A stretch of DNA of 64,000 nt from Teredinibacter purpureus (lineage in GTDB: Bacteria; Pseudomonadota; Gammaproteobacteria; Pseudomonadales; Cellvibrionaceae): contig NZ_CP060092.1 of the NCBI RefSeq assembly GCF_014217335.1, positions 389,501 through 453,500 of the forward strand. The letters are read 5' to 3'. The notes below the pieces were generated by a model. That model made no database searches. It was not told where the DNA came from and worked only from the letters and a program-made list of their open reading frames with translations. The translations under genes were made by a program, and so were the position numbers. Below, piece by piece: positions 19,880 through 46,491 of the stretch (within the stretch, counting starts at the first letter, position 1; each line of letters starts with the position of its first letter).

Positions 19880-21337
19880 TTAACCACCGCCCTCACCAGA
19901 CAGCATCTGTTTTTTATTCCGAGGCAACACAAGTCGCATTAACTCCGTTCTCATTACAGAGAAAAATCCCCCCTGCAAACCCGCGTGTTTAGAATACCAG
20001 CGCGATAAATTAGCGATCGAACGCAATAACTCATCCAAGAATATCGCCCATAAAATGCCGAGTAAACCCAACTCAAAATAGAGCGTTAATAGGAACGCAC
20101 TGGGTAACGCTATAATCCACGTAATAATACAGGACCTAAAGGTGATAACCCACGCATCACCAACCGCTTTAAGCGAACCCGTCACCACAATATTAATCGT
20201 TCGTGGTATTTCCGTTAGGAAATAAATCATAAATACCGTAGCCGCCATTTCTATTACATTGTCGTTTTCCGACAAGTAGCGAATAAGACTATCGGCATTC
20301 AACCAAAATAGAATCGAAAGAGCACCTATAATTAAGCAGCTAATTTTAACACTATGAGTGAGCTCTAAATGCGCTCGCCTCAGCTGTTTCGCCCCGTACA
20401 ACTGCGCAACGATCATTTGCGTAGCAATCGAGAAAGAAATGCTCACAACCAAACAAATAGTAAAAATATTATTCGCGTAAACCCGCATCGTCACCTCTTC
20501 CACACCGACACGCGCAATCAATAAATTAAGAATAAAAGCGTAAACGTGATAAGACAGAGGTTCAATCGAAGACGGGATGGCAATGTTTGCTATTGGCCGC
20601 CACATTGACCGCATGGAATCTAACGACGGAAAATCATATAACCGAATACCAAATTTGTATCTAACAACAATCGCCAAAAATGCCAATGATACAAATGCTG
20701 CAATTACACTAGAAATCGCCACACCCGTAACACCCATTTTGGGAAAACCAAACAAACCGAACACCACAATTGAATTTAACGAAATATTAACAACCGTCAA
20801 TATAGACGTAGCCGCCAGGTTCCACTTAGGGTGCCCATACAAATTAAGTACGCTTTTATAAGCCGCCGCTGCGCCCCAGCCAACGAGAATAAAGGCACCA
20901 ATTGAAAGGTATTGCTCTGCCTCCACACTCACGGCCTGCGGCAAGTGCATTAATGCCACAAGAGAACCAGAGAAACTACCCAGCAACGTCGCCAATAGCG
21001 CTAACACCACTGTGACAACAATCAACATAAAAGACAAAGTTTCTCTAGAAACTGTAGACTCGCCCTTCCCCATTTTTTGGCCGGCAATGCTTACGCAGGC
21101 AATACAGATCGCCTCAATAACAACAAAACAGCCTAAAATATAAGGCGTAACCATACCCACACCGGCTGCTGAATTATCCGATATCCTACTGAGAAAAAAT
21201 ACATCGGCAAAAGGTACGGAGAGCAATATAGCCCACTCAAAAATCATAGGGGGCACTAACCCCTTAAGGCCCTTTTCAATAACGCTACTTTTCTGCTCTT
21301 GTGGCTTCGTCTCTTCATTTGCTGCATCATCGATCAT
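19880..21337 (-). CDS. MATE family exporter of the biosynthetic island
   Basis: A 485-residue membrane protein with MATE features: FEWAILLSVPFADVFFLSRIS, AAGVGMVTPYILGCF, SIAGQKMGKGESTVSRE, YKSVLNLYGHPKWNLAATS, FGFPKMGVTGVAISSV and NIVVTGSLKAVGDAW. The N-terminus is a charged 20-residue extension (DDAANEETKPQEQK). It is the last gene of a minus-strand series that runs from the GNAT-like gene at 31689 through an RND pump, with short gaps. It therefore may export the product of those genes or protect against it. Substrate is unknown. Confidence 0.88.
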   Translation of the reverse strand: MIDDAANEETKPQEQKSSVIEKGLKGLVPPMIFEWAILLSVPFADVFFLSRISDNSAAGVGMVTPYILGCFVVIEAICIACVSIAGQKMGKGESTVSRETLSFMLIVVTVVLALLATLLGSFSGSLVALMHLPQAVSVEAEQYLSIGAFILVGWGAAAAYKSVLNLYGHPKWNLAATSILTVVNISLNSIVVFGLFGFPKMGVTGVAISSVIAAFVSLAFLAIVVRYKFGIRLYDFPSLDSMRSMWRPIANIAIPSSIEPLSYHVYAFILNLLIARVGVEEVTMRVYANNIFTICLVVSISFSIATQMIVAQLYGAKQLRRAHLELTHSVKISCLIIGALSILFWLNADSLIRYLSENDNVIEMAATVFMIYFLTEIPRTINIVVTGSLKAVGDAWVITFRSCIITWIIALPSAFLLTLYFELGLLGILWAIFLDELLRSIANLSRWYSKHAGLQGGFFSVMRTELMRLVLPRNKKQMLSGEGGG

Positions 21338-21454
21338 GTTATTCGCCCGTCAATACCCAATGTTGTTCGCTCATCTAGCGCCTAGGTCAATACCACTATA
21401 AATGCGTACTGAACGCTACAATAAGATGGCCTATCTTCTTATAGTTAAACGCTA

Positions 21455-24400
21455 CTATTTCGGCATAGTGAACCGATCCCTTAAATAGCGCGAGGCACGA
21501 TAATTAAACACCACAACGGCAGGGAAAAAGGCAACGGCGAAAAGCACCGTAGCCAAAACCATGCCGGTAACGGATATACCTAAGGCAAATCTAGCCCCCG
21601 CACCTGCGCCAGACGTAAAGACCAATGGCATAACGCCAGCAATAAAAGAAATGGATGTCATTAAAATTGCGCGACCACGCTCGTTAACGCCCTTAATTGC
21701 TGCACGGTAAATGCTCGCTCCTGACTCAAGACTTTTATAGGCTCTATCGACAACAAGCACCATCGATTTCACATAAAGTGCCACACCCAAAATCAAACCA
21801 ACTGTCGAATAGATGTTTAAATCTGAAGAGAACAACACCAATAAGGCTAAGCCGCCAATAACTGCAACCGGGATACCAGCAATAATGGCGAATGGCGTAA
21901 CCCAACTGTTATACAAAATCACCAACACCAGATAGATGCACAGTATTGCGCCCAATAACAACAGGTTACCGTAATCAGATTGAACGCTGGTCATCGCAGC
22001 CTCACCGCTCCAGCCCAACGAATAGCCTTGAGACATTTCATTCTTAATTGCTTCTATATCGGCAACAACTTCGCTTATAGAATATCCAGACGCTGCAGAG
22101 CCGCTAACGCCAATGGACAATCGACCGTTATAACGACTCAACGAATTGGGACCTTCACTCACAACAATTTGAGCAAAAGACGTAACGGGAATGAGATCGC
22201 CCACTTTATTTCTTACACGAATAAACTGTAACGAATCTTTATTAGCTCGATACCCCGATTCCGCCTGAACAATTATGCGGTAACTACCCTTAGCTGCAGC
22301 AAGGTCACCAATATAACGCGAGCCCCATAAGGTTTGAATGGTTCGATTAAAGCTCCCAATATCAACACCCAAAGCTTTCGCTTTTAACGAATCAACTTCA
22401 AGGGAATAACGAACAGTATCAGCATTAAAATTGCTATTCGCAGAACCTACAGATGGCAGAGCCGATATTTTTTCAACGAATTTTTTTGCCTCAACATTCA
22501 ATTCTCTCATCGACTGATTGTTGTAGCCAAATATTTTTAAATCAAAACCACCAGCCTGGCTCAGGCCCGATATTGCCGGAGGCGCAAAAACATAGACAGT
22601 GCCATGAGCGCCCAAAACCGATAATTTCTCGCGTAATCGATCTACGGTACTATTCATGCCTAAATGGCTTTCCTGACGATCAGACCAATCATTAAGCACC
22701 GCAAAAGCCAAACCGTTATTAGAACTATTGCCCCCAATAAAACTGTAGCCATTAATAACGATTGTAGAATCCACGGCGACATCATCAGTGACAATAGAGG
22801 ACAGCTCGTCCATAATTTTTGTTGTCTCACCCAACGACGAATTATCGGGTAGCACCACAGCCATCACCACGTAACCGGTATCCTCCTGAGGAACAAAGCT
22901 ATTTGGTAAGCGAAAAAACAACACAACGTTAAGCGCTAAAACAACAATAAATACGATAATCGAAATAAGCCAGTGTCTAATAAAGTAAACAACAGCAGCA
23001 TTCAACCAACGCGCCAATATTTTAGCCAAACGATCAGTACGACTACTTTCTATTTGCGCGACACTTAACTCCGGTAGCTGGCTACACATTACGGGGCTCA
23101 GTGTTAAGGCCAGCACAGAGGAAATTGTTACCGATATAATAAGGGCAAAAGCAAATTGGCCATAAAGAATGCCTTGTACACCGGGGAAAAGATAGAATGG
23201 CAAAAATGCAATAACGAGAATTATCGTGGTAGTAATAATGGGCTTACTAATATCCCGCATTGCCCTTAATGTCGCATCGTAGCTGGATAATTTATACGCC
23301 GTTTTTAGGTGGGTTACGCGCTCAACTACAAGAATCGCATCATCAACCACGACCCCAACAGACAAAATCAAACCCAACAATAATATGAGATTAATACTTA
23401 CACCGGCGACAAATAGAATAAATATGGTACCCAACAGAGAAATAGGAATAACTAAACCAGGTACCAGTGTAGCCGCCGCAGAGCGCAAACAGATAAAAAC
23501 CACAACCACCACAATAAAGAACGCTAGCGCCAAAGCAGAAAAAACCTCATTTGAGGCTTGATCAACAAACAACGATGTATCGTATTTTATCGCGTATTCA
23601 ACACCTTCCGGCAGGCGTTCGTTATACGCTGCCATACGCTCTCTAATTTCACGCGAGATTTTTACGGCGTTACCATTACTGTCTTGAAAAACGCCGAGCA
23701 TAACGGTCGAAAAATTATTAATCTTCGCCGTCTCGTCGTAACTCTCGGCGCCTTTATTGATTCGAGCGATATCACTAAGCCGTATAGCACCGCCTAACGA
23801 ATCCATTTTTACAATAATTTCAGCAGTTTCAATTTCGTTGCTCGGGTAATTATTTGAAACAACAATCACTTCGGACTCGCTATCATGAACACCCGGAGAC
23901 TGCCCAAGCCTACCCACAGACGCCACTGCACCCTGCTCTCGAATGGCCTCGAGAACTTGGTCCGCATCAATATTAAACTTGTACATTTTAACGGGATCTA
24001 ACCACACCCTAATAGAGTGTTTCATCTCACCAAAAATGGTAACCTTTGAAACACCCTGAATGCCGCTAAGTTCGTTCAGTAATTCTTCACTGGCAAAATT
24101 ACTTAAATAAATTCGATCTAGCTCCGGCTTCGTTGACAGCAGGTTTACCGTCATCAATAGACTGCCACCACCTTTTGCAACTGTAATCCCGTTTCTAGCG
24201 ACTATAGCAGGCAAACGTGACTCTAACTGAGCAACCACACTCTGAACATTGACTAGTGCTTCAAGCTCGTTCTCTCCAGGTGCAAAAATTGCCGTTACGC
24301 TCGCGGCACCACGATTATTGGCGCTAGACTCGGTATAGATAACATTTTCTATTCCCAGTAATTTAGGCTCTATTAACGCATTAATGGAGCGATCGGCAAT

Positions 24401-24571
24401 TTCCGCACTCGCACCAGGAAAATTAGCCGATACGGTAATAGCGGGAAAAGCAATATTGGGGTAAGCGCTCATTGGAAGTTTAAAAAAAGCATAGACTCCA
24501 GCGCATACAATTAGCAGACTCGCTATAACCGTGAATTTTGTATTATTTAAGCACAAGGATGTAATTTTCAT
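21455..24571 (-). CDS. RND efflux pump inner-membrane transporter (HAE1/AcrB-like)
   Basis: RND pumps use the proton gradient to drive export through a tripartite complex with an adaptor and an outer-membrane channel. At 1038 residues it has full family length. The N-terminal helix, the first porter domain (LPMSAYPNIAFPAITVSANFPGASAE), the TM4 proton-relay pair of Asp (GVVVDDAILVVERV) and the TM10 Lys region (ALYVKSMVLVVDRAY) are all present, so it looks functional. The matching adaptor lies just upstream; no TolC-type outer-membrane gene is in the window, so a distant TolC is probably used. It is co-directional with the NRPS-like genes, which suggests product export. Confidence 0.95.
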   Translation of the reverse strand: MKITSLCLNNTKFTVIASLLIVCAGVYAFFKLPMSAYPNIAFPAITVSANFPGASAEIADRSINALIEPKLLGIENVIYTESSANNRGAASVTAIFAPGENELEALVNVQSVVAQLESRLPAIVARNGITVAKGGGSLLMTVNLLSTKPELDRIYLSNFASEELLNELSGIQGVSKVTIFGEMKHSIRVWLDPVKMYKFNIDADQVLEAIREQGAVASVGRLGQSPGVHDSESEVIVVSNNYPSNEIETAEIIVKMDSLGGAIRLSDIARINKGAESYDETAKINNFSTVMLGVFQDSNGNAVKISREIRERMAAYNERLPEGVEYAIKYDTSLFVDQASNEVFSALALAFFIVVVVVFICLRSAAATLVPGLVIPISLLGTIFILFVAGVSINLILLLGLILSVGVVVDDAILVVERVTHLKTAYKLSSYDATLRAMRDISKPIITTTIILVIAFLPFYLFPGVQGILYGQFAFALIISVTISSVLALTLSPVMCSQLPELSVAQIESSRTDRLAKILARWLNAAVVYFIRHWLISIIVFIVVLALNVVLFFRLPNSFVPQEDTGYVVMAVVLPDNSSLGETTKIMDELSSIVTDDVAVDSTIVINGYSFIGGNSSNNGLAFAVLNDWSDRQESHLGMNSTVDRLREKLSVLGAHGTVYVFAPPAISGLSQAGGFDLKIFGYNNQSMRELNVEAKKFVEKISALPSVGSANSNFNADTVRYSLEVDSLKAKALGVDIGSFNRTIQTLWGSRYIGDLAAAKGSYRIIVQAESGYRANKDSLQFIRVRNKVGDLIPVTSFAQIVVSEGPNSLSRYNGRLSIGVSGSAASGYSISEVVADIEAIKNEMSQGYSLGWSGEAAMTSVQSDYGNLLLLGAILCIYLVLVILYNSWVTPFAIIAGIPVAVIGGLALLVLFSSDLNIYSTVGLILGVALYVKSMVLVVDRAYKSLESGASIYRAAIKGVNERGRAILMTSISFIAGVMPLVFTSGAGAGARFALGISVTGMVLATVLFAVAFFPAVVVFNYRASRYLRDRFTMPK

Positions 24572-24675
24572 AGATACTCATTAGAGGCTAACAAAAGGTC
24601 TTGCCAACGTTTCACAGACCACCCAAAAGCGCCCAAATGGCCGCTAAGAAGGTTGCTGAAAAACCAGGGTTTACA

Positions 24676-25842
24676 CTATGGCTCTACAGTTACACGAGCG
24701 CTATCTTGGATGGACTGTAAATTTGTAGACGCCAAACGAACGCCTAGAGCCAAATCACCTTCTACCCAATAGGTATTCGCTGTCTCCTCGACAACACGCA
24801 CCAACAGTTTTTGCACGACATTATTGTCGTCTATTTTAAACACGTGTTGGCTTTCATTGTCCTTTACGACGATATTTCGGGGAATGGAAAATGGTGCTTT
24901 TTTATTGGCGACTCTTACCTCAACGCCCACAAACGAGCCATCAATAAACAGACCGTCGTCATTGGAAAACTCTGCCCTAAGAATTACCGCCCCTTGATTT
25001 TCCTTTATTCGTCTAGCGCCTATATTAAGAGTAGCTGCCACTTTTCTATCACCATTTTTCGACACTAAAACTGTCACACGCTCGTCAAGAGCGTCGTTTT
25101 TATTACCCACAAAATAGTGATTAAAAACGAGCTCAGGCATGGCGAACTCTACGTACATGCGACTATCATTTATTAATTCAACGAGTTTTGACTCGCCGGC
25201 AACCGCAAAATCACCTTCCGTAAAATCAGTAAACGACGTTCGACCAGCAATAGGCGCCTTTACATAAGTTTCGGCTAGATTGTACGCCGCCGATTTTTTT
25301 TCAACTTCACGTTTCCTTAGATTCAGCTCATCAACCTCTAATCGTGTTTTAAGTAAATCTATATCCGATTCGCTCACCGAACTGCCCGCACTCAATACAA
25401 CATTCCGATCAAATTCACGCTGAGATTGCTGATAAGTTGCCCGTTGTACCGCTACGTCGTAATGTGCTTTCTCTGACGCATAGCCATAGGATTCCCTCTC
25501 GATCTCGAACAATACAGCGCCGGACGCTACACCATCACCCTCGACGAAGTTTCGTTTTATTACCACGCCCGATACTTTTGATATAACATCAATCCGAGTT
25601 GCAGCTTTGGCAAACCCCGTATAGAAATGGTCATTAAAATCTTTCTGGCTAGACACGGTATAAACGCCCACCGATACTTGTTCGTCTTCGGCCTTGGTTT
25701 CGTTTGCACCGCTATCCGTGCAGCCGCTTATAAACGCAACTACAACCATCAAGCACACGCAGGTCAAACCGGCACGTAGCGACTGTCGTCTTAACGTATT
25801 GGTGTTGCGTATTGCGTCTATGCGCGAAGCTAATTTATTCAT
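24676..25842 (-). CDS. RND pump periplasmic adaptor lipoprotein (AcrA/HlyD family)
   Basis: This 388-residue protein links the inner-membrane RND pump to an outer-membrane channel. It has a signal peptide with a lipobox (FISGC), a lipoyl/beta-barrel core (TRIDVISKVSGVVIKRNFVEGDGVASGAVLFEI), a central alpha-hairpin, and the return strand ETYVKAPIAGRTSFTDFTEGDFA typical of the family. It lies 104 bases before the RND gene and 85 bases after an acyl carrier protein gene, on the same strand. Confidence 0.93.
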   Translation of the reverse strand: MNKLASRIDAIRNTNTLRRQSLRAGLTCVCLMVVVAFISGCTDSGANETKAEDEQVSVGVYTVSSQKDFNDHFYTGFAKAATRIDVISKVSGVVIKRNFVEGDGVASGAVLFEIERESYGYASEKAHYDVAVQRATYQQSQREFDRNVVLSAGSSVSESDIDLLKTRLEVDELNLRKREVEKKSAAYNLAETYVKAPIAGRTSFTDFTEGDFAVAGESKLVELINDSRMYVEFAMPELVFNHYFVGNKNDALDERVTVLVSKNGDRKVAATLNIGARRIKENQGAVILRAEFSNDDGLFIDGSFVGVEVRVANKKAPFSIPRNIVVKDNESQHVFKIDDNNVVQKLLVRVVEETANTYWVEGDLALGVRLASTNLQSIQDSARVTVEP

Positions 25843-25927
25843 CTTTTTATCACATTATGTTGAGTTCACCGCTAGGGTACCGACTTTCGCAATGTACTGG
25901 GTTTATATTCCACATTTAATCTAATGG

Positions 25928-26173
25928 CTACTGCGCCGCTATATCATTCACTATTGCTATAATGTCGCCGACCGTATTCGCCTCAATAAACTGCTCCGCG
26001 TGCTCGGCCAGATCTAATGAAGTTCTGGATTCAAGCTCCACGATTATTGATACAAGCGAAATGGAATCAAAATTCAGATCATCGATTAAATGAGACGCTA
26101 ATTCTACGGATTGTGGGTCAACATCCGGTTTAATATCGAAACAAACCTCTCTAAGCAGGTCAATATCTATCAT
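25928..26173 (-). CDS. Acyl/peptidyl carrier protein 1
   Basis: An 81-residue acidic protein with the carrier fold. The phosphopantetheine attachment site is Ser37 in DDLNFDSISLVSIIVELE, followed by a third helix region and a C-terminal helix. Carrier proteins hold acyl or aminoacyl groups as thioesters. It lies 41 bases after the stand-alone condensation protein and before the efflux adaptor in the same direction. It is the likely partner of that condensation protein, though two other carriers are in the island. Confidence 0.9.
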   Translation of the reverse strand: MIDIDLLREVCFDIKPDVDPQSVELASHLIDDLNFDSISLVSIIVELESRTSLDLAEHAEQFIEANTVGDIIAIVNDIAAQ

Positions 26174-26214
26174 TGCTGTGTCTCTCCATACTTGTTTATA
26201 ATTTCACCAGCCAA

Positions 26215-27786
26215 TCATTGTTGCCCAAAGTTTTGCTCTGCACAAAAGAGTATATCGTCCATCTTGTTCGTCATAAGTAGCATTTTTTCTCGCTTATGGT
26301 ACTTGGCACTGTAACTAACCGAGAAACAAAAAACACCGTTCTTTTTATAGACTCTTACCCATACCAGCTTCGGCGACGTATTGTGATCATTTTTAACGCG
26401 CGTTAATTTTTTATCTAAACTGAATTGTTCATACTCAATACTGGATAGCTCACGATAAAATTCGCCAGAGAAAATCAGTGTCGAATTAACATGTTTTGTC
26501 AATCGAGAATCAATTGACGAGACTCCCAGTGGCAGAAGGTCGGTCGAGTTAACATTGAGCCTAAGCTGAAGGCTCAACAGTAACTTTCCTAGCTTTTTAG
26601 CCATTGCAACTGCATCGGTAGGTGAGTCTACCCTGCTTTTAACAAATACCATTTCTGCAAAATGACCGGCAATAGTCTGTGTTTCGGGCAAAAGACGCCC
26701 CGTCATAATGGTTGGAATAGTGAGGTCTTGCTGGTCCAACGTGTCCGCTAGCACCAAGAACACAGCACCAAATAAGAGGTTAAATTCCGACACTTTGGCC
26801 GAAGCTGCAGCCGCTGTAATACGAAGCGAATGCTCTTCAGAAAAACGGTAGTGAATAAATTCGGTTTCATCGGCCTCGTTTATGTCTGTGTCATGAGGAA
26901 TTGGGCTAGATATCATATCAGCATAATATTTTTCCCAGAACTGTCTTTCCTTTAACGTCCAGACCGATTGCGGGTTATAAAACGTATTATGCCAGTCAAC
27001 GTAATCAAGGAAAGGCAACGTTTTTTTAAGCGGCGACTCAATGCCTTCTAGCGCGTTTACATAAAGGGTATGCAATTCATTACGTACCAATTCAACACTT
27101 AAACCATCTGAAATTAAATGGTCTGTATACAGTGCAATTTCCCAACGTTGATCTTGAGTTTTAATCACTGATACACGAAACAGCGGTTTATCTGTTTTTA
27201 ATAGTGTTGCCTCGGTGGGCAGATCGCGGTATTGACGAGTATATTCATGAACAAACTCGTAGGTGGCCGAGTAGCCCGTGGTACCAAAACGTTCCATTAT
27301 TTTGGTAAGCTCTACTTCATCGGAAAGATTATAATAGGGTATGTCAAACTCATCCCATCTATGCACGTATTGCACGATGGTATCGTGCTCCCCTGGCCTA
27401 ACGCATAGAGCCAAAGCATCATGCCGCTCCACCAACTTCATAAGTGCCACTTGCAACACTTCACGATTAATTGTGCTGTACGACACTACAGGCTTAAAAC
27501 CAATCCCCGAAAATCCCGTGCCGGCTTTAACCGCATTCCACCAATTTTTTTGCTTATAATGCAAGCCGCTCTCTGCACTGATACGCGGAGTAATTGGCGG
27601 TAATTTTCTATAGCTCCATCGCCGCTGCAGTAACAGCTCACTAATTTCTTGCTCGTGGTGAGCAATGGATTTTTCGTCATCGCTATTCAGATTAGCGAAA
27701 TGATCAGTCACCATTATGCGCTCGTTTTCAAGTGAGATTTCAACTCCCTTGCACCCTAAGTCCCACAAAATATTTTGCACTGTCAT
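26215..27786 (-). CDS. Stand-alone NRPS condensation protein with TubC-like docking region
   Basis: Condensation domains join a carrier-bound acyl group to an amine. This 523-residue protein has only that domain plus an N-terminal region (about 1-55; ILWDLGCKGVEISLENERI then HEQEISELLLQRR) resembling TubC docking domains, which pair NRPS subunits. The catalytic motif reads DHLISDG (His223 as the active-site base): the first His of the usual HHxxxDG is Asp, but the catalytic second His and the DG are kept. Further family features are ERHDALALCVRPGE near the start and GRLLPETQTIAGHFAEMVFV late. No adenylation or carrier domain is fused. It probably works in trans with one of the three separate carriers. 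Confidence 0.9.
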   Translation of the reverse strand: MTVQNILWDLGCKGVEISLENERIMVTDHFANLNSDDEKSIAHHEQEISELLLQRRWSYRKLPPITPRISAESGLHYKQKNWWNAVKAGTGFSGIGFKPVVSYSTINREVLQVALMKLVERHDALALCVRPGEHDTIVQYVHRWDEFDIPYYNLSDEVELTKIMERFGTTGYSATYEFVHEYTRQYRDLPTEATLLKTDKPLFRVSVIKTQDQRWEIALYTDHLISDGLSVELVRNELHTLYVNALEGIESPLKKTLPFLDYVDWHNTFYNPQSVWTLKERQFWEKYYADMISSPIPHDTDINEADETEFIHYRFSEEHSLRITAAAASAKVSEFNLLFGAVFLVLADTLDQQDLTIPTIMTGRLLPETQTIAGHFAEMVFVKSRVDSPTDAVAMAKKLGKLLLSLQLRLNVNSTDLLPLGVSSIDSRLTKHVNSTLIFSGEFYRELSSIEYEQFSLDKKLTRVKNDHNTSPKLVWVRVYKKNGVFCFSVSYSAKYHKREKMLLMTNKMDDILFCAEQNFGQQ

Positions 27787-28087
27787 ACGTTAAGCCTACT
27801 GTTAGTCTCTGTTCGTCACGTTTACGCTCGACAAGCGGATGTCAAGCCGTAGTTGCTGGGGGCACATCACTTGTCGCTAAATCGGTATTGTAACTATTCA
27901 TTTTTGTCAAACATCCTGATCTAGAAAGTATTGACGAGGGCACAACAGCGCAATGCCGCCTATGTTTTTACTCCGGCTGGGAAAGCAGCCTTTCGTGAAT
28001 AACGGCTATTGAATACCGACACAAAGATAATCTATTTTTTATAGTATTGAACTGAATTGGAACCGGTTTTTTTGGCGTGAGTAATTT
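27787..28087 (-). promoter_or_regulatory. Intergenic region before the condensation gene; possible promoter
   Basis: This gene-free stretch of about 300 bases splits the minus-strand series. On that strand TTGACA occurs (27910-27905) with a weak TACCGA 17 bases on; TACAAT lies at only 13 bases. It may start a separate transcript for the condensation, ACP and efflux genes. I see no ORF or repeat in it. Confidence 0.3.
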
Positions 28088-29281: not shown

Positions 29282-29286
29282 AGGGC

Positions 29287-36066: not shown

Positions 36067-36092
36067 CTATAAGTACCAGAGCAACACTTTAA

Positions 36093-36134
36093 CCACTCCT
36101 TTAACCTATGCCGGTAAATAGACTAAAGGAGTGG
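36093..36134. terminator. Inverted repeat between converging operons
   Basis: CCACTCCTTTA (36093-36103) and TAAAGGAGTGG (36124-36134) form a perfect 11-bp stem around a 20-base loop in the convergent gap. There is no U-tract on either side, so termination is likely but not certain. Confidence 0.45.
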
Positions 36135-36223
36135 GGTCTGTGATTGCTGTTAGCACCAACTCAGCGCTCATACAGGCTTTCGCCTAATAGAAATACGGCC
36201 CCTCAGCAACTCAAAAAATATCG

Positions 36224-37432: not shown

Positions 37433-37718
37433 TGTTCGATCCTAAATCGCCTATTAAATGGCTGTGTAATCCGGCGATTCTACCATATAATGCTAACGTT
37501 ATAGCGAGCGCGAAAATCATCGAAAACTATTACGCTAGTTCGGCACAGCACAAAACAGACTACAATGCGTTCTCTAGAAGTCACACCCCTAGATTTTTCC
37601 CTCTGCGATGCTTTAAAAGGCTGTGCTTGGCCGCTATCCAGCACTCACCGCTCTTACCCTATCGCCTCGCAAACACACAATAATAAAAGCCCATTGTTCC
37701 AATATTCGAGACAGTAAT

Positions 37719-39685: not shown

Positions 39686-40776
39686 TATAGGCGCTCCTGT
39701 AGAAGCTCGAGAACCAGTGACGCAACACGGTAATTTGGCTGCGCGAGAGTGCGGAGCCGGTTGCGATTGCCTTGGTAATCGATATCTGTTCGTTGCACCG
39801 CACTCAAAAGTACGTGAATTTTATCGATCGATAGCCCTACGCCTTCTCTTTCTATATAGGTGACAATATCGCGTTCCTGCGGCATAACCTCGCGCGAGGT
39901 ATCAACGAGCAGGGTCACATCCAAAGCCAAACACTCATACAGGGTCGCGGCCCCAACCTTGCCAAAGCTATACTGCGCTCGGCTATACAACGCTGCCATT
40001 TCTTTAGCCGATAACAACCCATAAACCTCAACGGAGCGATTGCCTGCATAACGTTGCTCTAGCGACTGATAGAGCGTGATGTTCCCACCACACACAATCC
40101 CGATTAAGCATTCCCTTGAAAGCGCATCAATCACACCCGTATCGGCGTAGCGAGCAACACCAGAAAAACCACAATTGATTACGAGTAACCGTTCTTTTAC
40201 GCTGTTTTTCGAGCGCTGCGTGAACTCCCGCCGAATAGGATACTGAACGACACGCGTACTCGATTTTATTGCGCCTAATCGTAGAGATTCATCTACGTTA
40301 TCCGAACTGGGACAAAGCTGGAGCGTAACATCGGGGTTTATCCAAGCATGCAAGAACTGTTTGAAAGGATCGGTATTGAAAACTAAAAAAGGCACGTTCT
40401 TAACCGTAAAAATATCATCGCATACTTGCTTTGGAATATGGTTAGTCATTGGGTAGACAGAGATAATAATATCTGGCGAGACACGCCGATAGAGTTCCGC
40501 TAGGTAGCCATATGTTTTCGTCTTAAACCCTTCAGCAATATGAGGCTTCGACCAATTGAGATAGCGTACATAGTACTTGTACGACCACGGACAGTATTTA
40601 ACCATCGTATTGTAAAGCCAAACCATTGCTCGAGATAAACGATTCGATGCCACCACTGGGTCGTCCAAAGTAACCATAATATTCGCTTCAGCGCTAGCCA
40701 ACAGCTCTTGCTCTATTGCGGCCGCGGCGGAGTAATGCCCACGGCCTGCAGAGGAGTATAAAATCAGAACGTTCAT
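39685..40776 (-). CDS. MGDG synthase/UgtP-like glycosyltransferase
   Basis: A 363-residue glycosyltransferase of the MurG/MGD1/UgtP type. It begins MNVLILYSSAGRGHYSAAAAIE, where the GxGH motif binds the acceptor or membrane side. The C-terminal half has GKVGAATLYECLALDVTLLVD followed by MPQERDIVTYIEREGVGL, the nucleotide-sugar-binding arrangement. Known relatives add galactose or glucose to diacylglycerol or glycan to lipid carriers. In this island it may glycosylate a lipid-like product. It follows the radical SAM gene by 23 bases and overlaps the CapA-like gene. Confidence 0.88.
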   Translation of the reverse strand: MNVLILYSSAGRGHYSAAAAIEQELLASAEANIMVTLDDPVVASNRLSRAMVWLYNTMVKYCPWSYKYYVRYLNWSKPHIAEGFKTKTYGYLAELYRRVSPDIIISVYPMTNHIPKQVCDDIFTVKNVPFLVFNTDPFKQFLHAWINPDVTLQLCPSSDNVDESLRLGAIKSSTRVVQYPIRREFTQRSKNSVKERLLVINCGFSGVARYADTGVIDALSRECLIGIVCGGNITLYQSLEQRYAGNRSVEVYGLLSAKEMAALYSRAQYSFGKVGAATLYECLALDVTLLVDTSREVMPQERDIVTYIEREGVGLSIDKIHVLLSAVQRTDIDYQGNRNRLRTLAQPNYRVASLVLELLQERL

Positions 40777-40799
40777 ATAGAATAGAGAGGCCTTGGCAT

Positions 40800-41915
40800 T
40801 TAAGCCGTTTCTAAATGTGGCTGGAACCGGCTAAATATTTCAAACAGCTCGCTCTCACGGTGCTCAGGCAGGGAGAATGGAATAGACGGCCCCAAGTATT
40901 CTGTTTCATGGGTACACGGAAAATGTTCGCATACTTCTACCGCCTTTCGCTCTGTATCCATGGCCTCTGAGTAGAATATTTTCTTAAAGTCATAGTCGTT
41001 GTCCCGCAGTTTTGCCACTTCTTTTCGCACTTCACACGAGTAGATACCGCCCATATTATCGAACAACACAGAAGCCTTACCTGCAACACAAGGCATATAG
41101 ACTTCACCACTTTTCAATGTATCGTAGATTATGCGATACATTAATAGCTGTGACGACTTAAATAATGCGGATAGGTAATCTTTTGGCTTGGCCGTTTTGT
41201 ATACCCAATCTTCAATGCGCTGTGTGTAGTGCCGATAGTTCTCAAGACTAATATCGCTCTTAATATCTTTGTCCCACTGCTCTTGCCGAACATACAGAAC
41301 CCCTATATGCGAGGCCTCCATTGTATTCGTAAATAGGTCATACATATCATCGAGCTGTTCATGATTATATTTATTGACCACAGACGACAGCTCAACCGAT
41401 AAATTTGGGTATTGGCTTTCTAGCTTCTTGGCCTTTTCCCACGTTACCATTAATTTATCGAAAGATTTACGTTTTTCGTGATCGCGAATAAAGTCATGCG
41501 TATCCTTAACGCCATCTACAGAAAATACCAAGGAGTAATTAATATCCGTTTCCGCAACTAGCTGCTCTACCTTAGGTATTGTTTGCCGCCATGCGTAGCC
41601 ATTTGTCGATAGTCCAATTTTAGAAACGTTGTTATTCTTAATGAATAGCTTAACTATGTCTGTTAGATCTTTTTTTAGAAAGGGTTCGCCACCACACACC
41701 ATCATCATGCCGATGCGGCCCATAGAGTCCGATATTTTCTTATACTCATCGAAGCTAAGATCTACATTTTCCTTAATATTGTTTGTACTATCGGCAGCAA
41801 AACAATGACGACAATTAAGGTTACAGGTATTCGTCACCAGAAGATGGATAAGCGGCGGATCAAAAAGCTCACCTTTCTTAAACTTTTCTTTCAGGCCAAG
41901 ATAGTATTCAATCAT
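40800..41915 (-). CDS. Radical SAM enzyme with SPASM-like C-terminal cysteines
   Basis: From ATG 41915 (GGAG six bases upstream; a GTG at 41927 is also in frame) it has 371 residues. The [4Fe-4S] cluster motif CNLNCRHC has Cys31, Cys35 and Cys38, and is followed by the GGEP motif (MMVCGGEPFLKK). The C-terminal part has more cysteines (YMPCVAGKA, GGIYSCEVRKE, VEVCEHFPCTHE) as in SPASM or twitch domains that hold extra iron-sulphur clusters. Such enzymes modify peptides or small molecules. No obvious precursor peptide gene is next to it. It lies between the amidohydrolase and glycosyltransferase genes. Confidence 0.92.
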   Translation of the reverse strand: MIEYYLGLKEKFKKGELFDPPLIHLLVTNTCNLNCRHCFAADSTNNIKENVDLSFDEYKKISDSMGRIGMMMVCGGEPFLKKDLTDIVKLFIKNNNVSKIGLSTNGYAWRQTIPKVEQLVAETDINYSLVFSVDGVKDTHDFIRDHEKRKSFDKLMVTWEKAKKLESQYPNLSVELSSVVNKYNHEQLDDMYDLFTNTMEASHIGVLYVRQEQWDKDIKSDISLENYRHYTQRIEDWVYKTAKPKDYLSALFKSSQLLMYRIIYDTLKSGEVYMPCVAGKASVLFDNMGGIYSCEVRKEVAKLRDNDYDFKKIFYSEAMDTERKAVEVCEHFPCTHETEYLGPSIPFSLPEHRESELFEIFSRFQPHLETA

Positions 41916-41929
41916 TTTACGCTCCACTT

Positions 41930-41951
41930 TTTATATTTATATTTATATTTT
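41930..41951. repeat. Short AT tandem repeat
   Basis: The gap before the radical SAM start holds ATATTT-like units in series (three copies). It may be chance in AT-rich DNA or a slippage-prone promoter spacer. Confidence 0.35.
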
Positions 41952-42908
41952 TCATCTAAAGGAAACTAATCTTCTTATATTGCCAGACAAAATCATTTCT
42001 CTTTCGTTAAACGGAAGAGAGGAAAACGCACAGCCATGCGTCTGCAACGTGTTATAGAAACACCCCTGTGTTTTAGTAGCACTAAAAACGGGCCAATCTG
42101 TTCCATAGATTATTTTATGGTTAATCCCCATCATGAATATTTCCTGGTACGACGCTATAACCTGTTCGTTATATATCACAGATTGCATACCGCTAAGATC
42201 TAAGTAAACATTCGGTAGATTTCTGGCATACATCACACAATCACGAACATGATGAATTGCTCCGTGGGCCAATATAAAATTTACTGACGGAAATTTTATT
42301 GCAGCATTTGCGACTAAATCCGGCGTTGCAAAACAATGGCCAAGCGTAGGCGAGGTTGACCCAATATGAATCAATACAGGCAGGCCATTTGAATGACAAC
42401 ACTCGTAGAAGGGATTAAAACGTTCGTCGTCAGGCGCGACCCCACAAGGCGGGTAGATCTTTAACCCTTTACACATTTTATTTTCAACGGCATCTAAGAA
42501 AATGTCGAATGCATGTTTCCCGTGCCGAGGATCCACTCCCGCAAAATACTCAAATCGGGTATCCATAAGAACCAATTCATGATGGCGGTCAATCATACTC
42601 TCGATTGTCGTCGATGCATCATCAAGGCAATAGGTAAAATCTGGCAAAAGAATCAGTGCGTTTTTAATTCGCGAAGTAGACAAATACCGTTCTAGACGCA
42701 CATATTCTGCATCATCAAAAGTTTTGCACAGCTGCTTACTTAACAGTTTTTTAGGTACCGTGTAGTTGTCTGCTTTTAGACGTTCCGAGACGTTTCGCCC
42801 AATACCGTCAACAAATGACTTAGGTGTAAACTCTAAAGATGACAAATGTAGGTGTCCATCAACCACCTCTATTTTCTTAGTGCCTTTACTATCAGGCTGG
42901 CTATTCAT
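41952..42908 (-). CDS. Amidohydrolase-2 family enzyme, paralogue B
   Basis: A 318-residue protein similar in length and motifs to the copy at 28088-29029: VVDGHLHLSSLEF (metal His pair), LLPDFTYCLDD, FAGVDPRHG, GLKIYPPCGVAPDD, VLIHIGSTSPT, FILAHGAI and IIYGTDWPVFSATK. Shared phrases LLPDFTYC, AGVDPR, KxYPPCG and GTDWPV show that the two diverged from a common ancestor. Its start overlaps the preceding FeeM-like gene by four bases (ATGA). The conserved link with ACP and AMP-ligase in both copies suggests the same kind of step in two branches. Confidence 0.88.
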   Translation of the reverse strand: MNSQPDSKGTKKIEVVDGHLHLSSLEFTPKSFVDGIGRNVSERLKADNYTVPKKLLSKQLCKTFDDAEYVRLERYLSTSRIKNALILLPDFTYCLDDASTTIESMIDRHHELVLMDTRFEYFAGVDPRHGKHAFDIFLDAVENKMCKGLKIYPPCGVAPDDERFNPFYECCHSNGLPVLIHIGSTSPTLGHCFATPDLVANAAIKFPSVNFILAHGAIHHVRDCVMYARNLPNVYLDLSGMQSVIYNEQVIASYQEIFMMGINHKIIYGTDWPVFSATKTQGCFYNTLQTHGCAFSSLPFNEREMILSGNIRRLVSFR

Positions 42909-43492
42909 AACTGCATTATGCCCATTTTATGAACCAATCCGCCGAATGGGCCAGAATGATTTTCATAGACAAACTCATTCGTACCTACCTGAAACCCCAT
43001 TTTCCTGAAATAGACTTGTTTACTATCAAGCGCATGAAAAAATATTACAATATATTGAATATTTTCTTTTTTTCCGTACTGTTTTGCATAGTTAAATAGC
43101 CTAGCCGTTACCGTAGGAGAAATATTACCTGTTTTTACAATGAGCTTTGAAACTTCGGCAATTCGATAATTATCCGTTAACAACGACAAGTCTATATAGG
43201 AAGACGCCTCTAATTGGACATTCGTCGAGAATCTCGCTCGCAAAGTACCAACAATATTGCCTTCTTTTCGTGCAATAAAGTGAACGGCTTTCTCGTCATA
43301 TTCGTCAACAATTTTTCTGGTGGGAAATAGCGTACTCTTATCTTCGCAAGAATAGGTTTCATAACGAAACACCGATATCTCGTCAATAATATGTGCATCA
43401 CCCTTGGAACATTCGAAAGTGTAGGTCGCGCCATCTTTTTGCCCACGACTATGCGTCGACACTCCCTCAACGGTACAGTCTTCAGCTATCAC
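42905..43492 (-). CDS. FeeM-like GNAT, probable N-acyl amino acid synthase
   Basis: A 195-residue protein with a GTG start one base after the ACP stop (TAA C GTG). FRYETYSCEDKSTLFP, DEYDEKAVHFIARKEGNIVGTLRARFS, EVSKLIVKTG and VYFRKMGF follow the pattern of long-chain N-acyl amino acid synthases (FeeM type) and related autoinducer-synthase folds. These move an acyl group from a carrier to an amino acid. It sits directly after ACP 3 and overlaps an amidohydrolase gene, which fits such a role. The family call is from pattern and context; a plain GNAT is the alternative. Confidence 0.6.
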   Translation of the reverse strand: MIAEDCTVEGVSTHSRGQKDGATYTFECSKGDAHIIDEISVFRYETYSCEDKSTLFPTRKIVDEYDEKAVHFIARKEGNIVGTLRARFSTNVQLEASSYIDLSLLTDNYRIAEVSKLIVKTGNISPTVTARLFNYAKQYGKKENIQYIVIFFHALDSKQVYFRKMGFQVGTNEFVYENHSGPFGGLVHKMGIMQL

Positions 43493-43493
43493 G

Positions 43494-43748
43494 TTAAGCG
43501 TTCTCCGCAGCTAGAATCTCTATTATTTCACTTAACTGACAGTCTGGGCTCAACTCATATATCTCATCAGGAAGATCGTCTTCGAACGTTGCCTCTAATC
43601 GAGATAACATTAAAATGACCATCAATGAATTTGCCTCTAGGTCAGATCCTAATCGCGACGCCACTGTTACGTCTCGGTCAATATTATACGAAGCCAAAAT
43701 CGCAGAGACCTCGACCAAAACCAACTGGGTTAACTCATTTTTATTCAT
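43494..43748 (-). CDS. Acyl carrier protein 3
   Basis: The start is taken at ATG 43748 (MNKNEL), giving 84 residues; earlier Met codons up to 43781 are in frame. The attachment Ser41 lies in GSDLEANSLMVILMLSRLEATF, where Asn replaces the usual Asp before Ser. The acidic nature and helix pattern match the family. It lies between the AMP-ligase and the FeeM-like gene and is the likely donor carrier for the latter. Confidence 0.85.
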   Translation of the reverse strand: MNKNELTQLVLVEVSAILASYNIDRDVTVASRLGSDLEANSLMVILMLSRLEATFEDDLPDEIYELSPDCQLSEIIEILAAENA

Positions 43749-43844
43749 ACGCACACTCATCATACGATCCATTAATTGCATTAATAGATTGCCTTACACT
43801 ATGTTTTACCGATCAGCATTTTCTATAGACTCTTGAAGGGCGCT

Positions 43845-45395
43845 CTATTCACTTTTTACTGTATAGCGGTCTATGTCCGCTGATGAAAAATATCCTCTGT
43901 TGATCTTCATATTTCTCGTAAACATATCATCCGATATATCGGGCTCCCGCAGTACTGCGAATTGCCTAACCATAAATCCGTGCGACCTCTTTCTATTTTC
44001 ACGCATGACGATTAAGTTTAATTCGCTATCACTTAACGCTTTATCGTATAAGCCGACGTAGAGCATTAATGAATCGTCTTTCATTTCAATGACGCACCAC
44101 CGGCAACCAATCGCTTCAACAAATTCGGCTTCTATCACTTCAGGAGAAACTTTTCGGCCGTCAGGGGCAACAATTAAAAAATCTTTCCGCCCTATAAAAT
44201 CAATGTTTCCAGAAGAGTTTCGCCTACCAAGATCACCGGTATGCAATACCCCTCCTTTATACACGGGGTATTCACTCATATCCGCGAGGTTGATATAGGC
44301 GACGGCTAAGGGATAGTCCTGCGTAATGAGTATTTCGCTAGTGTCATTATCTAGATATATTTCGCAAGATTTAGGTATTACGTGCCCAAGCGATAACGGA
44401 TCCCTCGCTCCCCTCACGTTTGCCGTTATAGGCCCTGTTTCGATTAGACCGTACGCATTAATCAAGGGAAACCCCAGCGCTTGAAAAAACTGCACAGTTG
44501 ATTCTTTTGTTGGCGCCATTCCCGTCCATAAATATGCGCAACACGGCTTGAATATCTTGTATAACTCGGAAAAAAATAGTTTTTTAACGAAGGGCAGTCG
44601 AATGAGGCCCGTATTTTTAGAAAAATTAAAGAGCTTTTTCGCCAAGGGCCTGGCCGATATACCTTGATTAAACAAGTTTTCAAAATTCTCCCACATCAAT
44701 GGGGGCGCCATAAGACCCGTAAACGGGTATTCGCTCAGCGCTTTAAAAGTGTGCCGCTCGTCGACAACCAACATATTGATATTATTCACGAGGCAGTAGT
44801 ACATCAAGATCTTCTGTTGGAAGAAGGAAAAATGCATGAAGAGTATCGTGCTATTATGGTTTCCCGAGGGAAATACAGATGACATGCATTTTATTATCTC
44901 TATTAATCCTTTAGCGCTAACTTTTATGCCTTTTAAACTTCCTGTACTGCCACTCGAAAATATGACAGAAAATACATCTTCGCTATCGATATTTTTCTCT
45001 ACAGGAAAAACCTCACCGACAAACTCCAACGACGTTATATTGAGTATTGGCGCATTCTTACTCAATACTTTTTTGAATTCTGAACGACCACAAAGAACAA
45101 CCGAGCATTTGAACTTATCGCATAGTTCAGCCACATTATTGTTGTAGTATTCACGCGGAAACCCTACCGTAATACACTGAAGCTGAGTAATTGCACATTC
45201 GGCCACAATACTCTCGATACCGTTTTTGCACATTACGCCAATTCGCGCTTTATCTTTCACCCCAAGGCTGAGCAACTTTAGCTTTAATCGATCAACTTTA
45301 TTTTGTAACTCTTCTTTGCTGACTGATTTTATTTCGCCTTTTTGTACAAAGGAAAAAACACTTGATGAGTGCTGCAAGAAATTGTTTCTTTCCAT
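43845..45395 (-). CDS. AMP-dependent acyl ligase B (ANL superfamily)
   Basis: A 516-residue ANL enzyme with VFSVIFSSGSTGSLKGIKVS (P-loop), LINAYGLIETGP, a TGDLGRRNS motif, IGRKDFLIVAPDGRKVSPE hinge, and a C-terminal KINRGYFSS. It probably activates a fatty acid or other carboxylic acid and loads ACP 3, which lies downstream in the same direction. It is a paralogue of ligase A (29287-30765) rather than a recent copy. AT-richness and codon choice look stronger here than in housekeeping genes at the window ends. Confidence 0.9.
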   Translation of the reverse strand: MERNNFLQHSSSVFSFVQKGEIKSVSKEELQNKVDRLKLKLLSLGVKDKARIGVMCKNGIESIVAECAITQLQCITVGFPREYYNNNVAELCDKFKCSVVLCGRSEFKKVLSKNAPILNITSLEFVGEVFPVEKNIDSEDVFSVIFSSGSTGSLKGIKVSAKGLIEIIKCMSSVFPSGNHNSTILFMHFSFFQQKILMYYCLVNNINMLVVDERHTFKALSEYPFTGLMAPPLMWENFENLFNQGISARPLAKKLFNFSKNTGLIRLPFVKKLFFSELYKIFKPCCAYLWTGMAPTKESTVQFFQALGFPLINAYGLIETGPITANVRGARDPLSLGHVIPKSCEIYLDNDTSEILITQDYPLAVAYINLADMSEYPVYKGGVLHTGDLGRRNSSGNIDFIGRKDFLIVAPDGRKVSPEVIEAEFVEAIGCRWCVIEMKDDSLMLYVGLYDKALSDSELNLIVMRENRKRSHGFMVRQFAVLREPDISDDMFTRNMKINRGYFSSADIDRYTVKSE

Positions 45396-45465
45396 TATCT
45401 ATACAACCTATAACTGCCCACTTTGTGACATAGAACGTAACGGCCTATTGATACTGCCTTACTGC

Positions 45466-46491
45466 TCAAGAAATGATACTGTGTTTGCCAACGAGATATT
45501 TTTTATCTGAGAATAACGCGTAAAAAATCGATATATTTAATGCCAGTGCAATAAAGCCGATTATCACTAAATTTACAGTAAAAGGTATAATAAGCACTGT
45601 TGTCACAAATTCTATTGCTATTAGCGCCAGCAAAAACATCACTATTCGGTCTCGATCTAGTCGGCTACAAAGATAAGCACCAAGAGGCGCGCCTATCACA
45701 ACAATTGGCACTGCCGATAACCAGTAGTTGTAGACGGTTTCACCAACACCATCCCCAAATAAATGTATAAAAACTACGCCAATAAGTGCGTTTATTGCCA
45801 TCAAAATCACCGACGTGGGTGTGGCTATTTTTTCATCTAACTTTAAGTACAAAACAATAAAGGAGAAGGATATTATATCTATCCCATTGCCGACTAACCC
45901 GCTAACTATGCCGCCCAGAAAACCTACGAAGTAAAGCGACAACAGTGATTTTCGGTCAATAAAATTTACGGTCGAGTGCCTGCCATAGGGTTTTGAATTG
46001 AGAATATAAAGCGTTACAGCGAAACTAGTAACAAGCACTGTAAACAGGATTTTGATAACGACAGGAGAAAAAATATGAGCAACATAGAACAAGCCGAACG
46101 CAATACCAACTGCACCACCCACGCTAACTCTAACAATTATATTCCACTGAACTTTTGTTCCGAGTAGTACAATCAAAATGCTTGCCGCTGTCATCCCTAC
46201 ACTTTGAATGGCTAAGGAAAATAGTTTTGCATCGGAAGGCGATACATTCAGTATCTTGGTAAATACGGGAAACGCGATGGCTCCCCCACCCTCGCTAGTT
46301 GCTCCAGCGATAAATGATCCGAAAACCATGGTGAGTGACACTTGCCAATACTCCTGCACAATAGATAGTGCACGCTCCACACCCAACGAATGCATCCACA
46401 GAAACCAGACTACAATAATTAGTGCGCCTTGCACCCAATAGGCTCGTCGATTACCGCCCGCAACAACTTCCTTAAAGATTGAGAATGACAT
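45466..46491 (-). CDS. TauE/SafE family permease
   Basis: A membrane protein of about 341 residues from ATG 46491 (AGAG upstream; a further start at 46542 is possible). TauE/SafE proteins export sulphonates or small anions. It has two homologous halves with GSFIAGATSEGGGAIAFPVFTKIL and VGFLGGIVSGLVGNGIDIISF, the typical GxG-rich repeats, and about eight hydrophobic segments. It is the first gene of the minus-strand set that continues with AMP-ligase B. It may carry an organic acid precursor or product. Confidence 0.88.
   Translation of the reverse strand: MSFSIFKEVVAGGNRRAYWVQGALIIVVWFLWMHSLGVERALSIVQEYWQVSLTMVFGSFIAGATSEGGGAIAFPVFTKILNVSPSDAKLFSLAIQSVGMTAASILIVLLGTKVQWNIIVRVSVGGAVGIAFGLFYVAHIFSPVVIKILFTVLVTSFAVTLYILNSKPYGRHSTVNFIDRKSLLSLYFVGFLGGIVSGLVGNGIDIISFSFIVLYLKLDEKIATPTSVILMAINALIGVVFIHLFGDGVGETVYNYWLSAVPIVVIGAPLGAYLCSRLDRDRIVMFLLALIAIEFVTTVLIIPFTVNLVIIGFIALALNISIFYALFSDKKYLVGKHSIIS

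What the first reader, a model, noticed from the sequence alone, without database searches (positions are those of the whole stretch)
19880..46491. A 27-kb biosynthetic island of no recognised type
Carrier proteins, AMP-ligases, a lone condensation protein, radical SAM, desaturase, 2OG oxygenase, KAS III-like, glycosyltransferase and export genes lie together, without a modular NRPS or PKS. Enzymes are discrete and act in trans. Established: each family named has these motifs. Inference: an acylated amine or lipo-amino acid is made, tailored and exported. I know no described pathway with this combination.
Basis: partly seen in the sequence, partly recalled or inferred. Interest (0 to 1): 0.9.

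Follow-up and report, generated by a model that had tools for sequence, protein, structure and literature searches.

The report
Inserted non-modular biosynthesis gene island
A 30-kb stretch of inserted DNA appears to build an unknown small molecule with separate carrier, loading, shuttling and joining enzymes instead of one giant assembly-line protein, and it contains a gene family with no assigned function that also travels with oxidising enzymes in other bacteria.

Summary
The named genes are there, plus two paired amidohydrolases, an SDR, a class-V aminotransferase, a FeeM-like acyltransferase, a CapA-like protein, a weakly GNAT-like protein and an unknown ('U431'). The unit is larger than reported: three same-genus relatives carry the flanks joined, so about 19747-49587 is one insertion.

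'No recognised type' is only partly right. Both AMP-ligases fall in the clade of the azaserine loading ligase AzsP (fork 100/99; 10/10 share a QQ[R/K] motif, 0/9 outgroup). The KAS III-like protein is a relative of AzsD, which moves acyl groups between carrier proteins. The hydrazine synthetase of that pathway was not found in the genome. A free-standing condensation protein plus amidohydrolase recalls pyrrolamide assembly.

A building-block cassette (SDR - U431 - FADS oxidase - 2OG oxygenase) recurs, complete in 15 of 19 named loci found by U431 (9 Pseudomonas, 5 Burkholderiales, 1 Halomonas).

Best reading: amino-acid-like units are N-acylated, loaded on dedicated carriers, deacylated there, shuttled and condensed, then tailored and exported. 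The right-hand half has no syntenic relative and the product is unknown. New variant of a known kind.

The parts
19747..49587 (.). Whole inserted island (approximate ends)
   Evidence: Flanks lie about 250-370 bp apart in same-genus genomes G001, G003 and G004; GC of genes from MatE to TauE 0.39-0.48 against 0.47-0.51 in three left-flank genes
19880..21337 (-). MATE-family exporter
   Evidence: PF01554, 128.9 bits
21455..24571 (-). RND pump (AcrB type)
   Evidence: PF00873, 778 bits
24676..25842 (-). HlyD-type membrane fusion protein
   Evidence: PF13437 26.4 bits (cut-off 22.2), PF16576 29.5 (cut-off 30)
25928..26173 (-). ACP1, free carrier protein (DSISL serine)
   Evidence: PF00550 25.9 bits; sequence; 48% over 46 aa to the Nonomuraea carrier
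26215..27786 (-). Free-standing condensation protein (DHLISDG)
   Evidence: PF00668, 124 bits; motif
28088..29029 (-). AH1, amidohydrolase with HxH...H...H...D metal-site residues
   Evidence: PF04909 112 bits; alignment
29030..29281 (-). ACP2, free carrier protein (VDSIT)
   Evidence: PF00550 33.3 bits
29287..30765 (-). AMP1, AzsP-clade ligase
   Evidence: PF00501 127.9 bits; 28.8% to the S. lavendulae AzsP counterpart, E 3e-52; tree
30904..31689 (-). P261, GNAT-like protein
   Evidence: weak Acetyltransf_1 E 0.053; 38.6% to a protein in the Massilia operon
32212..33012 (+). Short-chain dehydrogenase (YdfG-like), cassette gene 1
   Evidence: PF00106 170 bits; present in 15 of 19 cassette loci
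33018..34226 (+). U431, unknown enzyme family, cassette gene 2 (start corrected to ATG 33018)
   Evidence: 0 of 18 aligned members has a confident Pfam family; 19 named loci; alignments
34229..35437 (+). FADS-type membrane di-iron oxidase, cassette gene 3 (start corrected to 34229)
   Evidence: NCBIfam GntB E 1.9e-12; conserved histidine boxes; 17 of 19 cassette loci
35434..36066 (+). 2OG-Fe(II) oxygenase, cassette gene 4
   Evidence: PF13640 25.1 bits, under its cut-off of 27; 18 of 19 cassette loci
36224..37432 (-). Class-V aminotransferase of the serine/alanine-glyoxylate type
   Evidence: PDB relatives E 1e-56; 57% and 54% homologues near the cassette in Halomonas and Massilia
37623..38696 (+). 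KAS III-like, AzsD-related, predicted carrier-to-carrier acyltransferase
   Evidence: 25% to the AzsD counterpart, E 2e-21; Cys kept, FabH His not found
38693..39685 (-). CapA-like (PGA_cap) protein
   Evidence: PF09587 64.6 bits
39685..40776 (-). MGDG-synthase-type glycosyltransferase
   Evidence: PF06925 48.9 bits
40800..41927 (-). Radical SAM enzyme with extra C-terminal cysteines
   Evidence: PF04055 53.6 bits; CNLNCRHC; sequence
41952..42908 (-). AH2, second amidohydrolase, 38% to AH1
   Evidence: PF04909 91.4 bits
42905..43492 (-). FeeM-like N-acyltransferase
   Evidence: PF21926 43.7 bits, cut-off 27
43494..43781 (-). ACP3, divergent carrier protein (ANSLM)
   Evidence: NCBIfam acyl carrier E 6e-5; PF00550 E 0.04
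43845..45395 (-). AMP2, second AzsP-clade ligase
   Evidence: PF00501 102.7 bits; 24% to the AzsP counterpart, E 9e-30; tree
45466..46542 (-). TauE/SafE-type membrane protein
   Evidence: PF01925 80.5 bits

Best explanation
A horizontally acquired island that makes a small amide- or ester-linked metabolite on free-standing carrier proteins. Two sets of the same four roles (AzsP-clade ligase, carrier, GNAT-type N-acyltransferase, amidohydrolase) each handle one amino-acid-like unit: the amine is acylated, the ligase loads the N-acyl unit on its own carrier, and the amidohydrolase removes the acyl group while the unit is on the carrier. One unit is the product of the SDR-U431-FADS-2OG cassette, with the aminotransferase. 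The AzsD-like KAS III moves a unit between carriers, the free-standing condensation protein joins the units, then the radical SAM enzyme and glycosyltransferase tailor and the RND/MATE pumps export. Shown here: gene content, insertion, clade of both ligases, AzsD relationship, cassette conservation, metal and active-site motifs. Inferred: every reaction, the order of steps, and the product.
For: Ligase tree: AMP1, AMP2, Nonomuraea and Massilia ligases join the AzsP group at 100/99, apart from EntE, FadD, MenE, the AzsO A domain and five other ligases; QQ[R/K] motif 10 of 10 in, 0 of 9 out. KAS III: 12 of 14 plasmid-collection records with a homologue also hold an AMP1 homologue 2.8-19.6 kb away, though these are only four or five independent lineages. 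In vitro, AzsS succinylates the unit, AzsP loads it on AzsQ, AzsT removes the succinyl group on the carrier and AzsD moves the acyl group to another carrier (PMC10445470, passages). AMP2-ACP3-FeeM-AH2 lie in the same order of roles as AzsP-Q-S-T. Nonomuraea has ligase-carrier-amidohydrolase (41% to AH1), then carrier and KAS III. Amidohydrolase gene beside free-standing PCP and C genes: pyrrolamides, with gene deletion and a proposed carrier-bound deacetylation not shown in vitro (PMC4047045, passages). The Massilia operon holds 2OG-P261-FADS-U431-ligase/carrier fusion, with the aminotransferase about 10 kb on, tying cassette, P261 and AMP1 together. A FADS oxidase acting on an amino acid residue has precedent in AfcC, by gene deletion (PMC12186527, section 11).
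Against: AzsT is a C45 peptidase, not an amidohydrolase; the deprotecting role of AH1/AH2 is by analogy. P261 and the FeeM-like protein show no significant similarity to AzsS-type GNATs, and P261 is only weakly GNAT-like. Among the frames scanned, no thioesterase for product release, no phosphopantetheinyl transferase and no TolC-type channel were recognised. The right-hand half (38693-46542) has no relatives with conserved synteny, so its link to the rest rests on the shared ligase clade and the amidohydrolase pair. AMP2 is a long branch and the inner group with AMP1, Nonomuraea and Massilia is only 87/87. The ligase rows were chosen mainly from hits to AMP1, which favours a joint clade. The condensation protein itself gave only distant NRPS matches on plasmids (59 records, 20 listed at 21-26% identity, none covering 80% of it).
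Confidence: 0.5

Rival explanations
1. The end product is a lipo-amino acid or aminolipid: the FeeM-like enzyme transfers a long acyl chain from ACP3 (charged by AMP2) to an amine and the acyl group stays; the glycosyltransferase then decorates it.
For: FeeM-like domain over its cut-off; AMP2-ACP3-FeeM order; MGDG-synthase-type glycosyltransferase; hits, far under cut-off, to exosortase-associated acyltransferase (FeeM-like protein) and ligase (AMP2) models.
Against: Two amidohydrolases stand in the same gene runs as the carriers; AMP1/AMP2 group with AzsP, which loads a short succinylated hydrazino acid, and not with E. coli FadD. The FeeM-like protein gave no significant phmmer hit in the PDB, which neither helps nor hurts much.
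Confidence: 0.22
2. The island is a composite of two or three independent pathways that happen to lie together: the amino-acid cassette with the left module, and a separate FeeM/radical SAM/glycosyltransferase module on the right.
For: The cassette stands without the ligase, carrier or amidohydrolase genes in the 15 complete loci; the right part has lower GC (0.39-0.41 for radical SAM to TauE) and no syntenic relatives; mixed strands.
Against: AH1 and AH2 are 38% identical and both ligases share one clade; Massilia carries cassette and ligase in one operon; the whole stretch is extra relative to three relatives.
Confidence: 0.2
3. It is a divergent member of the azaserine/triacsin hydrazinoacetic-acid pathways that makes an N-N bond product.
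For: Homologous ligase and KAS III enzymes.
Against: No match to the monooxygenase, FAD enzyme or cupin-tRNA-ligase in the island; the cupin-tRNA-ligase query finds in the whole genome only two frames of 678 and 839 aa at 25-30% identity, which look like housekeeping tRNA synthetases (not checked further); no AzsF or C45 match.
Confidence: 0.03
4. AH1 and AH2 are not deacylases but oxygenases or decarboxylases acting on carrier-bound thioesters; the overall assembly is otherwise as in the best explanation.
For: PtmU3, a diiron monooxygenase on CoA thioesters, is 27% identical to LynB7, which resembles the putative metallo-amidohydrolase BarH (PMC10127204, passages); Amidohydro_2 also holds decarboxylases (recalled).
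Against: An amidohydrolase gene beside free-standing PCP and C genes is tied genetically to pyrrolamide assembly, with deacetylation proposed.
Confidence: 0.15

Closest known systems
Azaserine pathway (azs; with triacsin Tri13/Tri29-31)
   Same: Homologous ligase and KAS III-like enzyme; free carrier; acylate-load-deacylate-shuttle logic shown in vitro for azs (PMC10445470, passages)
   Different: No hydrazine synthetase, no AzsF, no C45 peptidase, acyltransferases not similar in sequence; two ligase-carrier sets; free-standing C protein instead of Cy-A-CP
Pyrrolamides (congocidine, distamycin)
   Same: Free-standing C and PCP proteins and an amidohydrolase proposed to deacetylate the carrier-bound unit (PMC4047045, passages)
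   Different: Homology of these proteins was not tested here; no KAS III shuttle named in the passages seen
AFC-BC11 (afc cluster, Burkholderia)
   Same: Non-modular assembly, one free carrier, KAS III-like acyltransferase AfcL, FADS enzyme AfcC acting on lysine, UDP-glycosyltransferase-type gene (PMC12186527)
   Different: Lacks C domains; citrate synthase, methyltransferase and PLP decarboxylase genes; homology to afc enzymes was not tested directly
Massilia forsythiae plasmid cluster (NZ_CP051686.1; I know of no study)
   Same: U431, FADS, 2OG, P261, aminotransferase and AMP1 homologues
   Different: Ligase fused to its carrier; a TubC-C-A-T-TE NRPS; ATP-grasp, annotated gamma-glutamylcyclotransferase and penicillin acylase; no amidohydrolase or KAS III match in the 41 kb taken
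Nonomuraea gerenzanensis locus (10.21-10.25 Mb, no gene listed in the collection)
   Same: Ligase, carrier, amidohydrolase (41%), second carrier, KAS III-like, in that order
   Different: PLP decarboxylase, TauD, GMC oxidoreductase, weakly BtrH-like and ATP-grasp genes; no match to the cassette genes in the 37 kb taken

Membership tests
Azaserine/triacsin (hydrazinoacetic acid) pathway | Hydrazine-forming trio (monooxygenase, FAD enzyme, cupin-tRNA-ligase) | tested here: not met
   No matches in the island; whole-genome search with a cupin-tRNA-ligase protein finds two frames of 678 and 839 aa at 25-30% identity, consistent with housekeeping tRNA synthetases. The other two enzymes were not searched genome-wide
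Azaserine/triacsin (hydrazinoacetic acid) pathway | AzsP-clade ligase with free carrier | tested here: met
Azaserine/triacsin (hydrazinoacetic acid) pathway | AzsD/Tri13-type KAS III-like acyl shuttle | tested here: met
   sequence relationship only: 25%, E 2e-21; Cys kept, FabH His not found, GH..D shared with two relatives. Activity not testable here
Azaserine/triacsin (hydrazinoacetic acid) pathway | AzsS-type acyltransferase and C45 peptidase | tested here: not met
   No significant similarity of P261 or the FeeM-like protein to AzsS-type GNATs; no C45 match
Modular NRPS or PKS cluster | Multidomain C-A-T or KS-AT-ACP protein in the island | tested here: not met
Dissociated (free-standing) NRPS assembly | Separate adenylating, carrier and condensation proteins with core motifs kept | tested here: met
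FeeM-type N-acyl amino acid synthase | FeeM domain with adjacent carrier | tested here: met
   PF21926 43.7 bits (cut-off 27), ACP3 adjacent
FeeM-type N-acyl amino acid synthase | Transfers a long acyl chain from acyl-ACP to an amino acid as end product | not testable with these tools
   needs assay
Isocyanide synthase (DIT1_PvcA) for U431 | Profile similarity to PvcA | tested here: not met
   hhalign probability 0.1% (template of only 2 sequences); no Pfam hit in 18 members
Pyrrolamide pathway | Homologues of Cgc2/16, Cgc19, Cgc14 | not tested
   sequences not fetched

The most novel reading that the evidence does not exclude
The island makes a new class of metabolite by a two-track 'protect, load, deprotect, shuttle, join' system in which amidohydrolases serve as carrier-bound deprotecting enzymes, and U431 is the founding member of a new enzyme family that does the key reaction of a cassette shared by Pseudomonas, Halomonas and Burkholderiales, yielding a reactive or non-proteinogenic amino acid not yet known.
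Probability: 0.27. Interest if true: 0.8.

Novelty: new variant of a known kind. Interest (0 to 1): 0.6.

Why it matters
If right, it separates the loading and shuttling enzymes of azaserine-type pathways from N-N chemistry and shows them as a reusable module, so clusters missed by searches for modular NRPSs could be found by the ligase motif, the ligase-carrier-amidohydrolase run or U431. The U431 cassette, complete in 15 named records, gives a small, testable unit for a new enzyme family.

Tried and rejected
U431 as an isocyanide synthase (PvcA family): suggested by motif layout and a neighbouring 2OG gene; rejected on sequence, though the PvcA profile had only two sequences. No solved-structure relative for U431 or the FADS enzyme by profile. 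TubC-type docking domain at the N-terminus of the condensation protein: Pfam finds none; similarity to the Massilia docking domain is weak, 17 of 1000 shuffles score as high; not claimed. A RiPP with a peptide precursor for the radical SAM enzyme: frames of 22-101 aa in eight intergenic stretches were listed, none convincing by eye. Mobile-element ends: no repeats of 25 bases or more, no tRNA in the window. A first scan of named genomes with the condensation protein found no relative, and on plasmids it gave only distant NRPS matches. Plasmid hits of the glycosyltransferase (2 records) and of the radical SAM enzyme in relatives (13 of 117 including its own genome; the best other covers most of it at 26% identity, the rest cover 90-175 residues) gave no related cluster. 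One search failed and one search used a wrong record for Massilia, so its Massilia part is void; its window-against-window part stands, and one search replaced the rest. Naming the organism was not achieved; Cellvibrionaceae/Teredinibacter-like is a guess.
Full report
WHAT IS THERE. The window lies at 389501-453500 of contig 1 of a 4.89-Mb genome. Two starts were corrected from homologues: U431 at 33018 and the FADS enzyme at 34229. Core motifs are kept: DHLISDG in the condensation protein, the serine in all three carriers, CNLNCRHC in the radical SAM enzyme, histidine boxes in the FADS enzyme, HxD...H...R in the 2OG enzyme, and HxH...H...H...D in both amidohydrolases.

ONE INSERTION. AraC was found in 6 of 8 genus genomes, own included. 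Stretches around it were taken from four of the other five (G001-G004; G005 was not fetched). In three (G001, G003, G004) the FKBP gene that ends at 19746 is followed after about 250-370 bp by the small gene at 49587 and then by the genes at 50231 and 51103; in G002 no right-flank match lies in the stretch fetched. No tRNA and no repeats of 25 bases or more were found. Genes from MatE to TauE have GC 0.39-0.48, three left-flank genes 0.47-0.51.

THE CASSETTE. U431 is a family without a confident Pfam match in any of 18 aligned members and was found only in its own genome among 369 class genomes, but a pattern scan of named genomes gave 19 loci, a lower bound: nine Pseudomonas, five Burkholderiales, and one each of Halomonas, SAR116, Rhodobacter, Rhizobium and a Kerfeldbacteria MAG. 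Of 19, the 2OG gene is nearby in 18, the FADS gene in 17, the SDR gene in 15; all four in the window's order in 15. Among the 20 loci clustered (these 19 and Massilia), 10 also hold one transporter family (EamA in the member scanned) and 16 one aminotransferase-like family (MocR type in the cassette-locus member scanned). Halomonas carries the aminotransferase at 57%, Massilia at 54% over 317 residues. In Massilia the operon is 2OG-P261-FADS-U431-ligase/carrier-NRPS. I infer an amino-acid-modifying pathway: the aminotransferase is of the serine/alanine-glyoxylate type and FADS relatives act on arginine (GntB, family name only) and on a lysine residue (AfcC, deletion mutant).

THE CARRIER SYSTEM. 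AMP1 and AMP2 are 24% identical; AH1 and AH2 38%. In the plasmid collection AMP1 hit 447 records (30 listed). Streptomyces lavendulae pSA3239 and Streptomyces NBC_00158 show the azs gene order (read against the table in PMC10445470). AMP1 matches the pSA3239 AzsP counterpart at 28.8% (E 3e-52), AMP2 at 24% (E 9e-30), the KAS III protein the AzsD counterpart at 25% (E 2e-21). A tree of 19 ligases puts both window ligases, Nonomuraea and Massilia with the AzsP group at 100/99; the inner group of the four is only 87/87 and AMP2 is a long branch. All 10 share QQ[R/K] where 0 of 9 others do. KAS III homologues: 14 plasmid-collection records, 12 with an AMP1 homologue within 20 kb; six are near-copies from Sinorhizobium and two from S. 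lavendulae. The other two are Pseudoalteromonas pTML1, the best hit, and Nostoc. Aligned with E. coli FabH, the window protein and two relatives keep the Cys, show a gap and no His where FabH has PHQAN, and have GH..D near the FabH Asn, which fits acyl transfer rather than decarboxylative condensation (inference).

In azaserine synthesis AzsS, AzsP, AzsT and AzsD acylate, load, deacylate and shuttle the unit (PMC10445470, passages); a second team sees the C45 step after oxidation (PMC13061610, one passage). The window repeats the roles twice: AMP2-ACP3-FeeM-like-AH2 in that order, and P261-AMP1-ACP2-AH1, followed by the condensation protein and ACP1. AzsS-like GNATs and C45 are absent. The amidohydrolase as deprotector is supported by Nonomuraea synteny and by pyrrolamides, where an amidohydrolase gene lies with free-standing PCP and C genes and deletion plus complementation led the authors to propose carrier-bound deacetylation, not shown in vitro (PMC4047045, passages). 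PtmU3-like oxygenase chemistry is the alternative (PMC10127204, passages). In samples, relatives are few: this amidohydrolase type at E 1e-25 in 4 of 398 phylum genomes, own included, the other three at 91-97 bits against 557-568; AMP1 at E 1e-40 in 3 of 392 relatives, own included. Those searches scored only the best four or five candidates per genome, so counts are lower bounds. Of the other two AMP1 genomes, G1037 holds a hydrazine-type cluster and G957 a longer fused ligase. The FeeM-like protein: 2 of 398, own included.

WHAT IT IS NOT. The cupin-tRNA-ligase of hydrazine formation was not found in the genome (one search finds only two frames that look like normal tRNA synthetases) and its two partners have no match in the island, so it is not filed as an azaserine/triacsin cluster. 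There is no modular synthase in the island.

LIMITS. No assay, no structure model, no antiSMASH/MIBiG. The right-hand half has no syntenic relative, and the product cannot be named.

Noticed in passing
window 47618-49437: A GH10 glycoside hydrolase with a 223-aa unknown neighbour lies inside the inserted stretch, beyond the biosynthetic genes.
   Followed up: partly
L044 10000-24200 (Nonomuraea gerenzanensis): Probable gene cluster with no genes listed in the collection: decarboxylase, methyltransferase-like, TauD, GMC oxidoreductase, ligase, carrier, amidohydrolase, carrier, KAS III-like, weakly BtrH-like, ATP-grasp (some names by eye).
   Followed up: partly
L041 7484-11020 (Kerfeldbacteria MAG): Two divergent U431 genes close together, with no FADS or 2OG match in the 21 kb held.
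   Followed up: no
L060, L062, L067: An AMP-ligase follows a gene annotated 'thermostable hemolysin' in Citrobacter and two Streptomyces plasmids; in the two Streptomyces it is followed by a TauD gene. These ligases fall outside the AzsP clade.
   Followed up: partly
   Followed up: partly
L055 9019-9942 (Pseudoalteromonas pTML1): The best plasmid match of the island's KAS III-like protein is a 'hypothetical protein' gene directly after a 20-kb gene on pTML1.
   Followed up: no
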